Shown: positions 33,263-37,177 of the stretch, in pieces
Numbering within the stretch: position 1 is the stretch's first letter
Layout of the letters: every line of letters begins with the position of its first letter
Source of the DNA: Planctomycetota bacterium
GTDB lineage: Bacteria; Planctomycetota; UBA1135; JACQFD01
Reading direction: 5' to 3'
Length of the DNA stretch: 64,000 nucleotides
Assembly: GCA_016200225.1 (NCBI GenBank)
Contig: JACQFD010000012.1
Span: 62,001 to 126,000 of the forward strand
The notes under the pieces: generated by a model
Told to the model about the DNA's origin: nothing
Seen by the model: only the letters and a program-made list of their open reading frames with translations
The model's database searches: none
Position numbers and translations under genes: made by a program

Positions 33263-33736
33263 ATGCCGCGTCGATATAAAAGCACGGATCCGCTCATCGT
33301 TCCGGATCCAGTATACAATTCAAAGCTCGCCACCAAGATTGTCAATAAGATCATGGGAGAAGGCAAGAAAACGACAGCTCAGGCCGTTTTTTATCAAGCG
33401 CTCGACCTCGCTCAGAAGAAACTCGCCGGCGCGGAGAAACTCGACATCTTTACAAAAGCGATCGAGAACGTGAAACCGCAGGTCGAGGTTCGAAGCCGCC
33501 GCGTCGGCGGCGCGACGTATCAAGTGCCGCGCGAAGTGCGCAAGAATCGGCAACAGTCGCTCGCGGTTCGCTGGCTCGTCGAAAATGCCCGCAAGAAAAA
33601 GGGCAAGCCGATGTCCGTCCGTCTCGCGGAGGAATTTGTCGACGCATTTAACAATACCGGCGCTTCCGTGATGCAAAAGGACAATGTTCACAAAATGGCC
33701 GAGGCAAACAAGGCCTACAGTCACTTTGCGTGGTAG
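33263..33736 (+). CDS. rpsG: 30S ribosomal protein S7
   Basis: 157 residues. Starts MPRRYKSTDPLIVPDPVYNS, then KIVNKIMGEGKKTTAQAVFY and VEVRSRRVGGATYQVP, the signature RNA-binding loop, followed by RWLVENARKKKG. It initiates 30S head assembly and contacts the mRNA exit region. The ending MAEANKAYSHFAW is typical. A strong terminator lies 75 nt after the stop, so rpsL-rpsG transcription probably ends there and fusA is expressed separately. Confidence 0.98.
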   Translation: MPRRYKSTDPLIVPDPVYNSKLATKIVNKIMGEGKKTTAQAVFYQALDLAQKKLAGAEKLDIFTKAIENVKPQVEVRSRRVGGATYQVPREVRKNRQQSLAVRWLVENARKKKGKPMSVRLAEEFVDAFNNTGASVMQKDNVHKMAEANKAYSHFAW

Positions 33737-33810: not shown

Positions 33811-33841
33811 CAAACGGACCCGCTCGGGTCCGTTTGTTTTT
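33811..33841 (+). terminator. Strong intrinsic terminator after rpsG
   Basis: CAAACGGACCCG (33811-33822), loop CT, CGGGTCCGTTTG (33825-33836): a perfect 12-bp GC-rich stem followed by a run of T residues. It separates rpsL-rpsG from the Tsr3-like gene and fusA. Confidence 0.92.
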
Positions 33842-33869: not shown

Positions 33870-34352
33870 ATGCAGAACATACTTATCATCCGCGATGCGC
33901 GGGAATCGACGAGGAAATGTTCCATTGCCGCGATCCAAGGGATGCCGAATATTACATTTCGCGGATGGCGGCGCGATCATACAATTGCGCTTCCGCCGCA
34001 CGTGCTTTTGTGCCCGGGCGCGCCGCCGCTCGCTTCGGAGGACGGCGGCCTTCCGCTCCTGCTCGTCGACTCGTCGTGGCGGCATTTGCCTCAATTGATG
34101 CGCGACGTGCGGGGTACATTCGCGCTGCGTTCAATTCCGGCCGGTTTCGCGAGCGCGTATCCGCGCAAATCGCGTGTCTTTAACGATCCGGACGACGGGC
34201 TGGCGACCGTCGAGGCCCTTTTTATTGCATTGGCGGTTTTGGGGGAGTGGCGCGACGATATCCTCGAACACTATCATTTCAAGTCGGAATTCATGAAGAT
34301 CAACGAGCTCCGTTTCAACGCGTTGCGCGAGCAGGCGACTTCGCAATTATAG
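33870..34352 (+). CDS. Tsr3-like (DTW/DUF367-type) putative rRNA aminocarboxypropyltransferase
   Basis: 160 residues from the ATG at 33870; an earlier in-frame start lies inside the terminator hairpin and is unlikely. The pattern follows Tsr3, the enzyme adding the acp group to helix 31 of small-subunit rRNA in archaea and eukaryotes. An N-terminal D-A-R-x(3)-R-K-C segment is followed by [14 protein letters not shown] (compare the VIDCSW motif), then [34 protein letters not shown] (compare LSTVEA) and [13 protein letters not shown] (compare FKWGHTFLELN). The ANPVNYG motif of Tsr3 is not preserved. DTW-domain tRNA acp-transferases are a related alternative. Its place between rpsG and fusA fits a ribosome role. 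It ends 12 nt before fusA. Confidence 0.62.
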
Positions 34353-34364
34353 TATCATAATATC

Positions 34365-36440
34365 GTGTCCGCAAAAGGCCCCGACCTCTCGAAAACCCGA
34401 ACCTTTGGAATCGCCGCGCACATCGACGCGGGCAAGACCACGGTCTCGGAGCGGATTCTTTATTATACTGGGATCGAACACCGCATGGGCGAGGTGCACG
34501 AAGGCAACACCGCGATGGATTGGATGGAAGAGGAACAGCAGCGTGGAATTACTATTACCGCGGCCGCGACAAACTGTCCGTGGCAGGGTCATCGTTTACA
34601 ACTTGTCGACACGCCCGGCCACGTCGATTTCACCGCGGAAGTCGAGCGTTCTCTGCGCGTCCTCGACGGCGCGATTATCGTATTCGATTGTTTAAATGGC
34701 GTCGAAGCGCAAAGCGAGACGGTCTGGCGCCAGGCGAATAAGTATCATGTTCCGCGGATGGCGTTTCTTAATAAACTCGACAAGCCGGGAGCCGAGCCCG
34801 CGAAATGCATCGATGACATCCGCAGGCGTCTCAACGCGAACGCGGTTGCGATTCAGCTCGCGATCGGACGCGAAAAAGAATTTGAAGGCGTCGTCGATCT
34901 CGTCGAAATGACCGAAATACGATTTCCCGAGAACGAACTTGGCTCGCGGCCGGCGGTCACGGCGCTCTCGGACGAATGGAGTGAATCCGCGCGCGCGGCC
35001 CGCGTCGAATTGATAGAAAAAGTCGGCGAAGTCGACGAGGTCATATTTGAGAAATACGTCCATGGAACGGAAATCGACGCTCCGACGCTCCGCGCGGCCA
35101 TCCGGCGCGCTACAATTAAGAATGCGTTCGTCCCGGTGATGATGGGCGCGGCTTTTCGTAATAAGGGAGTCCAGCCTCTACTCGACGCGATTGTACATTA
35201 TCTGCCGTCGCCGATCGATCTGCCGCCCGTGAAGGGATTCGAACCGCAGACCGAAAAAGAAGTATTGCGAAAGCCCGATCCGTCCGACGCGTTCGCGGCG
35301 TTGGTTTTTAAGATATTCGGCGACGCCCACGGTGATCTTACTTATATTCGTATCTATTCCGGAACATTAAAGTCGGCCGATCTTTTGTATAATGCGCGCA
35401 CCGGAAAACCCGAACGCGCGAACCGCATTTTTCGCATGCACGCGAACGATAAACAACAGATCGATTCGGCGTGCGCCGGCGATATTGTAGCGATTCCCGG
35501 GCTCAAGGAGACGGTGACGGGCGACACGCTGTTCGAACGCGGAAAACCGGTCGCGCTCGAACGCTCGCAATTCCCCGAACCCGTGATTTCGATGGCGCTC
35601 GAGCCGAAGAGTTCGACCGACCGCGACAAACTTCTCGAATCGTTAAAACGCCTCGAGCGCGAGGATCCTACATTTCGGGCGCGCACGGACGCGGAGTCGG
35701 GTCAGGTGATCATTGCCGGAATGGGGGAGTTGCACCTCGAAGTGCTTTCGCACCGGCTCGAGCGCGAATATCGCGTTCCTACGAATGCGGGAAAACCTTT
35801 CGTATCCTATCGCGAAACGATACAAAAAGAAGCCAAAGCGGCGCATGTCTTCGAACGCGAACTCGGCGGCAGGAAATTGTATGCTTCCGCGACGGTGATC
35901 GTAAGGCCGGGACAGGATACGAAACCGCGGGTTATAATTAATAATAATATTTTGACTTCGCCGATCGGATTGCTTCGCGCCGCGTGCCGTGGAATTCAAC
36001 AATCCGTCGAGGATGGCGCCCAGTCCGGGGCGAATTTCGGTTTTCCGATGGTTAATATTGAGATTGAGGTCGCGGAAATCGTCTGGACGGCCGAATCGAC
36101 CGAAGTGGCGGCGCAGGCCGCGGCGTCGGAGGCGTTTGCAGCCGCCGTTTCGGCTGGAGGCGGCGAATTGTTGGAACCGATTCTTCGATTCGAGATCCGC
36201 ACGCCGGGCGAATTCCTCTCGGGCGTCCTGAACGACCTGCAGGGTCGGCGCGGCGTCGTCGAGGACTTGACGATCGAGGAAAACGTAAAGGTCGTTCGCG
36301 GGACCATTCCCGCCGGCGAGACCTTTGGATATACGACAGCACTTCGTTCCCTCTCTCAAGGGCGGGCGACGGCGGCGCTTGAGCCAAGCCGTTATGCGGC
36401 TGTTCCGGACAAAATTCGAAGGGAAGTCACGGGATCATAA
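34365..36440 (+). CDS. fusA: Elongation factor G (divergent form)
   Basis: 691 residues from GTG. The five-domain translocase is recognisable: P-loop [10 protein letters not shown], switch [13 protein letters not shown]3 DTPGHVDF, G4 NKLDK (NKMDR is usual), domain [13 protein letters not shown] and domain [23 protein letters not shown]. Domain IV reads [20 protein letters not shown], and the ending [20 protein letters not shown] deviates from the common SMTQGRAxYxMEFxHYxxVP. It may be one of the paralogous EF-G types (spdEFG) described in planctomycetes and spirochaetes, though it sits in the str-operon slot. The Tsr3-like gene ends 12 nt upstream. No tuf follows. Confidence 0.93.
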
Positions 36441-36472
36441 TTGCATTTCCCCAGTGAAACCCGGTTCACGTG

Positions 36473-36501
36473 TTGACCGGATTCCGGCGTATCGCTAAAG
36501 T
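36473..36501 (+). promoter_or_regulatory. Candidate promoter of the S10 operon
   Basis: TTGACC (36473-36478), 17-nt spacer, TAAAGT (36496-36501), 32 nt after the fusA stop. It shares its -35 hexamer with the HU and tRNA-tuf promoters. It would give a leader of about 365 nt before rpsJ. Confidence 0.5.
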
Positions 36502-36871
36502 CCTCGCCCCTTTTTCATCGGGGATCCCTAAACCGGGCAACCTGATGACTCGAATCGCCCGGACCTCTGTCGGGAGGTGCGTGCGAGGTTGTTTTTTGTT
36601 GTCTATGTCGTTTGGCTTCGCGCTTCCGCGCGCGAAGCGAAATCGATATCGAGATCAGCGATATCGAGATCAGCGAATACACAACAAAAACGATGACGAA
36701 AAGGCGCGAGCCGCCGGCCGTTGGCGGCCGGTCACTATTCCAAATATTTAAATATCAAATCCTTCCAATCCCGTTTCGTTAACTCCCGGGGCGATCGACA
36801 CTTGATCGCGACGGGAACAACCAATCAATCTTTCCATTTCTAAATCTCCTCAAGAACCTCAAAGAAATCCA
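36502..36871 (+). promoter_or_regulatory. Structured leader of the S10 operon (no gene)
   Basis: TTTTTGTTGT (36593-36602) can pair with ACAACAAAAA (36681-36690), closing an 80-nt domain. Inside lies a 9-bp hairpin (36615-36623 with 36630-36638, GCTTCGCGC/GCGCGAAGC) and a 15-nt tandem repeat. Farther down CCGGCCG-TTGG-CGGCCGG (36714-36731) is another hairpin. An open frame of 93 codons crosses the region but is built from these repeats and resembles nothing. In E. coli the S10 leader is the L4 autoregulation target; a similar role is inferred here. Confidence 0.55.
36644..36673 (+). repeat. Two 15-nt tandem repeats in the S10 leader
   Basis: CGATATCGAGATCAG occurs twice without a gap (36644-36658 and 36659-36673), inside the loop of the long-range stem. 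Confidence 0.92.
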
Positions 36872-37177
36872 ATGAAGGAGAAAATCCAAATTCGGATGGA
36901 GGCCTACGATCACGAGTCGCTCGACCAGTCCGCCGCCGATATTGTAGAAACGGCCAAGCGCACTGGAGCCCGTGTCTCGGGTCCGATTCCGCTCCCCACG
37001 CGAATCGAACGCTACACAGTGCTTCGATCGCCGCACACGGATAAGAAGTCGCGGGAGCAATTCGAAATTCGCACGCACAAGCGTCTTATTTACATTTCGG
37101 ATCCGACCAGCAAAACGGTCGACGCGCTTTCGAAACTGAACATGCCAGCCGGCGTCGATATCCGGATCAAGGCTTGA
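36872..37177 (+). CDS. rpsJ: 30S ribosomal protein S10
   Basis: 101 residues. [40 protein letters not shown] and [18 protein letters not shown] are the family blocks. S10 packs in the 30S head and, free, is the NusE partner of NusB and NusG. First gene of the S10 cluster, preceded by the long structured leader; no SD (the stretch before the ATG is CTCAAAGAAATCCA). Confidence 0.98.

What the first reader, a model, noticed from the sequence alone, without database searches (positions are those of the whole stretch)
33870..34352. Tsr3-like rRNA-modification gene between rpsG and fusA
The product keeps the VDSSW, TVEA and FKSEFMKIN-like landmarks of Tsr3, an acp-transferase for helix 31 of small-subunit rRNA known mainly from archaea and eukaryotes. 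A bacterial member inside the str region suggests an acp modification of bacterial 16S rRNA near the P site, or another ribosomal substrate.
Basis: inference. Interest (0 to 1): 0.62.

Follow-up and report, generated by a model that had tools for sequence, protein, structure and literature searches.

The report
Planctomycete Tsr3-like acp-transferase beside ribosomal genes
The gene encodes a small bacterial cousin of the Tsr3/TapT RNA-modifying enzymes, sitting among ribosome genes, but these bacteria lack the uridine that Tsr3 modifies in ribosomal RNA, so its real target is still unknown and can be tested.

Summary
ORF 33870-34352 (+) encodes 160 aa with the DSSW, TVEA and FKSEF..N landmarks. 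A profile of 29 relatives finds only one protein significantly in the whole PDB: Tsr3 (5APG, E=4e-11; 5AP8, E=7e-5). An AlphaFold model (pLDDT 93) has Tsr3 5APG as its only significant Foldseek match. The gene occurs in 58 of 61 genomes of its planctomycete order, nearly always as one copy, and is patchy in the phylum. It adjoins rpsG and/or fusA in 19 of 31 loci examined. Catalytic Asp and SAM-binding Trp are invariant in 60 relatives.

The specific interpretation fails a direct test. Tsr3's target is a uridine at helix 31 (E. coli 966). That position is G in every 16S aligned here, 37 carriers and 52 non-carriers. RsmD-family proteins (m2G966) are in 61 of 61 order genomes; Nep1 is absent.

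The family is not new: Burroughs and Aravind (2014) described a TDD family, pc1599, from planctomycetes and relatives; I found no later functional work. Best reading: a SAM-dependent acp-transferase of pc1599 type acting on an unidentified uridine, probably in rRNA, with tRNA as main rival. The str-operon placement and the G966 exclusion appear to be new.

The parts
33870..34352 (+). Tsr3-like (TDD superfamily, pc1599-type) acp-transferase gene, 160 aa, ATG start
33903..33923 (+). E12 to S18: conserved E-x(3)-K-C-S/T motif; S18 aligns with SAM-binding T19 of Vulcanisaeta Tsr3
   Evidence: alignments; T19 role from PMC7026641
34068..34079 (+). D67-S-S-W70: DxSW motif (proposed catalytic Asp and SAM-binding Trp of the superfamily)
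   Evidence: D67 and W70 invariant in 60 of 60 relatives; role from PMC7026641
34158..34166 (+). Y97-P98-R99: invariant family signature, where Tsr3 structures have ANP/GNP
34197..34217 (+). G110-L-A-x-x-E-A116: invariant GLAxxEA motif, counterpart of the LSxxEA motif of Tsr3
33811..33841 (+). Strong intrinsic-terminator-like hairpin plus U-run between rpsG and this gene
   Evidence: z = -4.26
33263..33736 (+). rpsG (ribosomal protein S7), upstream neighbour
34365..36440 (+). fusA (EF-G), starts 12 bp after the stop codon: likely co-transcribed

Best explanation
The gene encodes a stand-alone minimal TDD-superfamily (Tsr3/DTW, SPOUT-fold) enzyme of the bacterial pc1599-type family. It most likely binds SAM so that the 3-amino-3-carboxypropyl group faces the active site, uses D67 as base to deprotonate N3 of a uridine, and transfers acp, giving acp3U and methylthioadenosine. 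The substrate is most likely a uridine of ribosomal RNA modified during subunit assembly. It is not nucleotide 966 of helix 31, which is G in these bacteria. Shown here: homology, predicted fold, conservation of active-site residues, gene placement, absence of the Tsr3 target base. Inferred: the chemistry (from superfamily enzymes), and rRNA rather than tRNA as substrate (mainly from gene placement).
For: The family profile finds Tsr3 5APG at E=4.2e-11 and 5AP8 at E=7e-5, with no other PDB chain below E=0.1. The model has pLDDT 93.4 and pTM 0.88; Foldseek gives 5APG at E=9.9e-8, probability 1.00, the only match under 0.001, with TapT next. PF04034 is matched by 26 of 29 members, best E=2.5e-12. 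D67, W70, E115 and C17 are invariant and S18 is S/T in 60 relatives. The TDD proteins characterised in the papers read are acp-transferases on uridine or a pseudouridine derivative (PMC7026641, PMC6895100). The gene adjoins rpsG and/or fusA in 19 of 31 loci, in families f1, f2, f5 and f8 of the order; several archaeal Tsr3 genes also lie near ribosomal super-operons (PMC4275035). h31/966 excluded.
Against: Placement among ribosomal genes is not universal: in two other families of the order (f6, f7) the gene follows an apparent glycosyltransferase-9/heptosyltransferase gene, and outside the order the neighbours are unrelated. No rRNA uridine separates carriers from non-carriers cleanly. A terminator lies between rpsG and the gene. 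Enzymatic activity was not tested.
Confidence: 0.5

Rival explanations
1. It is a tRNA acp-transferase, a small functional counterpart of TapT/DTWD enzymes making acp3U in tRNA (positions 20, 46 or 47).
For: The well-studied bacterial TDD enzyme, TapT (YfiP), acts on tRNA (PMC7026641, PMC6895100). 42 of 61 genomes of the order, including this one, have no canonical DTW protein, while 58 of 61 have this gene.
Against: In the phylum the two families are distributed independently: 63 carriers, 62 genomes with DTW over cut-off, 16 with both against 13 expected, so there is no mutual replacement. The four-cysteine zinc motif of TapT is absent. Sequence and fold are nearer Tsr3. tRNA gene neighbourhoods were not searched systematically.
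Confidence: 0.33
2. It performs the Tsr3 reaction itself: acp at 16S helix 31 (nt 966).
For: Family and fold similarity to Tsr3.
Against: Nt 966 is G in all 37 carrier 16S sequences that cover it; RsmD-family proteins are in 61 of 61 genomes; Nep1 was in none of 21 tested.
Confidence: 0.02
3. It transfers acp to a non-RNA substrate (a protein side chain, as in diphthamide on EF-2, or a small molecule), for instance its neighbour EF-G.
For: Stop codon 12 bp before the fusA start; fusA adjoins the gene in 18 loci.
Against: The other known acp-transferases, including those for diphthamide, have no sequence homology with the TDD superfamily, whose tested members act on RNA uridine (PMC6895100). 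In f6, f7 and other families the gene is not near fusA.
Confidence: 0.06
4. It is a catalytically idle RNA-binding or assembly factor.
For: None specific.
Against: All superfamily active-site positions are invariant over 60 diverged relatives.
Confidence: 0.03

Closest known systems
pc1599 family of the TDD superfamily (Burroughs and Aravind 2014, PMC4275035)
   Same: Planctomycete (PVC superphylum) distribution, single TDD domain, detected from Tsr3 searches, DxSW core.
   Different: Probably the same family, but its founder sequence could not be compared here. The paper's text reports no str-operon location for it and no substrate, and predicted an RNase.
Tsr3 (DUF367, PF04034; PDB 5APG, 5AP8)
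   Same: Closest in sequence profile and fold; DxSW, E-A motif, K-x-S/T motif, core-only size, gene near ribosomal genes in several archaea.
   Different: Target nucleotide U966/U1191 absent (G in these bacteria); YPR instead of ANP/GNP; below Pfam and NCBIfam cut-offs for this protein; bacterial.
TapT (YfiP)/DTWD2, DTW domain PF03942 (PDB 9KZ5, 9KYT)
   Same: Same superfamily and DxSW core; bacterial.
   Different: No zinc-binding N-terminal extension; PF03942 E=0.025 only; Foldseek E=0.02; the two families occur independently in the phylum.
RsmD (16S m2G966 methyltransferase)
   Different: Unrelated family; a PF03602 protein is present as well in all 61 genomes.

Membership tests
TDD superfamily (SPOUT-like acp-transferases) | D/E-x-S/T-W motif | tested here: met
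   D67-S-S-W70, D and W invariant in 60 of 60
TDD superfamily (SPOUT-like acp-transferases) | Conserved D/E after strand 1 and E in the penultimate helix motif | tested here: met
   E12 and E115 invariant in 60 of 60
TDD superfamily (SPOUT-like acp-transferases) | Fold of Tsr3/TapT | tested here: met
   Foldseek 5APG E=9.9e-8, then TapT
TDD superfamily (SPOUT-like acp-transferases) | SAM-dependent acp transfer to RNA | not testable with these tools
   needs biochemistry
Tsr3 (16S/18S helix 31 acp-transferase) | Over the curated family cut-off | tested here: not met
   PF04034 24.9 of 29.9 bits; NF002621 25.7 of 152; NF053630 16.5 of 300
Tsr3 (16S/18S helix 31 acp-transferase) | Uridine at the target position (E. 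coli 966) | tested here: not met
   G966 in all 37 carrier 16S sequences covering it
Tsr3 (16S/18S helix 31 acp-transferase) | Belongs to the archaeo-eukaryotic clade in a tree | not tested
   only two archaeal Tsr3 sequences were at hand
TapT/DTWD (tRNA acp-transferase) | DTW domain PF03942 over cut-off | tested here: not met
   14.8 of 33.7 bits
TapT/DTWD (tRNA acp-transferase) | N-terminal C-x2-C-x6-C-x-C zinc site | tested here: not met
   only two cysteines, C17 and C48
pc1599 family | Bacterial TDD family mainly of the PVC superphylum, distinct from TSR3 and DTW | tested here: met
   Planctomycetota host and relatives; members match both the TSR3 and the DTW model, the first better
pc1599 family | Direct homology to Protochlamydia pc1599 | not testable with these tools

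The most novel reading that the evidence does not exclude
Planctomycetes carry an acp-modified uridine in ribosomal RNA, a modification that to my knowledge is not known from bacterial rRNA, at a site different from the archaeal/eukaryotic one and made by a Tsr3 cousin. A weak first place to look is 23S helix 35, where positions 740 and 757 are both U in all 25 carriers (17 of 34 non-carriers).
Probability: 0.35. Interest if true: 0.7.

Novelty: new member of a known kind. Interest (0 to 1): 0.42.

Why it matters
It would add a further functional branch to the acp-transferase superfamily: bacteria that keep a Tsr3-type enzyme next to ribosomal genes although the Tsr3 target base is absent. Finding the target would show either a new bacterial rRNA hypermodification or how the superfamily switched substrate between rRNA and tRNA. 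The prediction can be tested with one deletion or one mass-spectrometry experiment.

Tried and rejected
(1) Helix 31 as target: rejected, G966 everywhere it could be read and RsmD family present. (2) Replacement of TapT: no anti-correlation (16 genomes with both, 13 expected). (3) Search for rRNA uridines that track the gene: no clean column in 16S; in 23S the best is the 740/757 pair of helix 35, both U in 25 of 25 carriers against 17 of 34 non-carriers. It was picked from about 2,900 columns without correction for relatedness, so it is only a lead. (4) Rfam 16S model on 40 genomes: 16S not found in most, complete genomes included, perhaps because stretches are withheld or masked, so family f32 could not be checked. 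(5) Single-sequence phmmer against the PDB gave only chance hits, the best to sulfurtransferases around the DxSW stretch; the family profile resolved this. (6) Plasmid collection: no match with the nearest relative's protein as query. (7) The alternative TTG start at 33834 lies in the terminator; the ATG at 33870 matches the family start.

Full report
The gene. ORF 33870-34352 on the + strand encodes 160 aa. It lies between rpsG (stop codon ends at 33736) and fusA (start 34365), 12 bp ahead of fusA. A strong intrinsic-terminator-like hairpin with a U-run (33811-33841, z = -4.26) separates it from rpsG, so it probably forms a transcription unit with fusA and not simply with rpsL-rpsG.

Host. 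The only relative found in the named collection of bacterial genomes is a Planctomycetota MAG. Whole-genome searches place the window in a 5.3 Mb draft genome. The gene is found in 58 of 61 genomes of the same order, nearly always as one copy. A phylum-wide sample gives 65 of 294, two of which are weak hits overlapping true DTW proteins (G142, G202), leaving 63. The distribution is close to universal in the order, consistent in one other family with complete genomes (f32), and patchy elsewhere.

Family. Against single models the protein scores 24.9 bits to PF04034 (cut-off 29.9) and 14.8 to DTW (cut-off 33.7). In an alignment of 29 relatives, 26 of 29 members match PF04034 (best 2.5e-12) and 11 match DTW (best 6e-4) at E up to 1. 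The family profile finds Tsr3 5APG at 4.2e-11 and 5AP8 at 7e-5, with nothing else significant in the PDB. The AlphaFold model is confident (pLDDT 93.4, pTM 0.88), and Foldseek returns 5APG as the only match below E=0.001, TapT next, then SPOUT methyltransferases such as TrmD and Trm10 with weak scores. Over 60 non-redundant relatives E12, C17, D67, W70, Y97-P98-R99, G110-L111-A112, E115-A116 and Y135 are invariant, and S18 is S or T. By the alignment, D67 and W70 are the catalytic Asp and SAM-binding Trp described for Tsr3 and TapT, and S18 stands at SAM-contacting T19 of Vulcanisaeta Tsr3 (PMC7026641). The YPR signature replaces the ANP/GNP of the two Tsr3 structures and marks the family.

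Prior knowledge. [quoted passage not shown] They recovered a Planctomyces brasiliensis protein in the second PSI-BLAST round from archaeal TSR3. The present protein fits that family. A full-text search finds the name in no other paper held; a later survey states that TSR3 orthologs predominate in eukaryotes and archaea and not in bacteria, without discussing this family in the passages read (PMC6895100). I found no assigned substrate in the papers available, which exclude most subscription journals.

Test of the first interpretation. Tsr3 modifies U1191 of yeast 18S and its archaeal 16S equivalent; the bacterial counterpart is a methylated G (PMC7026641), nt 966 in E. coli numbering (numbering from general knowledge). 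I read helix 31 in every genome where the pattern could be found, in the order (29 genomes) and the phylum (118 genomes), and aligned 39 carrier and 52 non-carrier 16S sequences to E. coli. Position 966 is G in all 37 carriers that cover it and in all 52 non-carriers. The search pattern leaves positions 965-968 free, so it does not favour G. These carriers include several families of the order and, outside it, families f36, f61, f62, f64 and f71. In the window's own genome the sequence reads TTCGACGCAACGCG, with G at 966. PF03602 (RsmD family) matches occur in 61 of 61 genomes of the order, best per genome 1e-26 or better in all but one, and Nep1 (PF03587) in none of 21. So the ordinary bacterial h31 modification machinery is in place and there is no uridine for Tsr3 chemistry. 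Limitation: 16S could not be read in the complete f32 genomes.

Which substrate then? Gene placement points to the ribosome: rpsG and/or fusA adjoin the gene in 19 of 31 loci, covering families f1, f2, f5 and f8 plus a named MAG. In f6 and f7 it follows a gene that reads as an ADP-heptose:LPS heptosyltransferase-type GT9 protein (reading by eye, no profile search), and outside the order neighbours are diverse: type IV pilin-like DUF1559, squalene-hopene cyclase, cytidylyltransferase of CMP-KDO synthetase type, VWA/BatA. The ribosomal linkage is therefore a feature of part of one order and not a general one. Distribution relative to DTW/TapT is independent (16 genomes with both, 13 expected), which argues against simple replacement of TapT. 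A scan of rRNA columns for uridines present in all carriers gave no decisive site; the best is the 23S helix 35 pair 740/757 (both U in 25 of 25 carriers, 17 of 34 non-carriers), a chosen-from-many observation confounded by ancestry.

Conclusion. Acp-transferase chemistry on RNA uridine is very likely (about 0.85, my estimate) from fold and active site. Substrate in rRNA (about 0.5) is favoured over tRNA (about 0.33) only by placement and by nearness to Tsr3. The finding is a new, well-conserved member of an already named but functionally orphan family; the points that appear new are the str-operon placement and the exclusion of the Tsr3 target.

Noticed in passing
window 34365-36872: No tuf gene between fusA and rpsJ: the cluster runs rpsL-rpsG-X-fusA-rpsJ-rplC, unlike the usual str operon rpsL-rpsG-fusA-tuf.
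   Followed up: no
L005, L006, L008, L011, L013, L014, L022 (fusA next to the gene): The EF-G encoded at this locus is only 39-45% identical to the window's fusA in many relatives while S7 stays at 62-72%, suggesting different EF-G paralogues at the same place or fast EF-G evolution.
   Followed up: no
L124-L127, L007 (families f6, f7): The Tsr3-like gene directly follows a glycosyltransferase-9/heptosyltransferase-like gene in two families of the order; in L117 it follows a CMP-KDO synthetase-like gene.
   Followed up: partly
L130-L209, 23S helix 35 (E. coli 740 and 757): Positions 740 and 757 are both U in all 25 carriers with readable 23S but in only 17 of 34 non-carriers; not corrected for ancestry or multiple testing.
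   Followed up: partly
Order-level relatives: Many genomes carry a canonical DTW (PF03942) protein in a long open frame (400-700 aa), which could be the reported fusion of planctomycete DTWD2 proteins to an inactive exonuclease domain.
   Followed up: no
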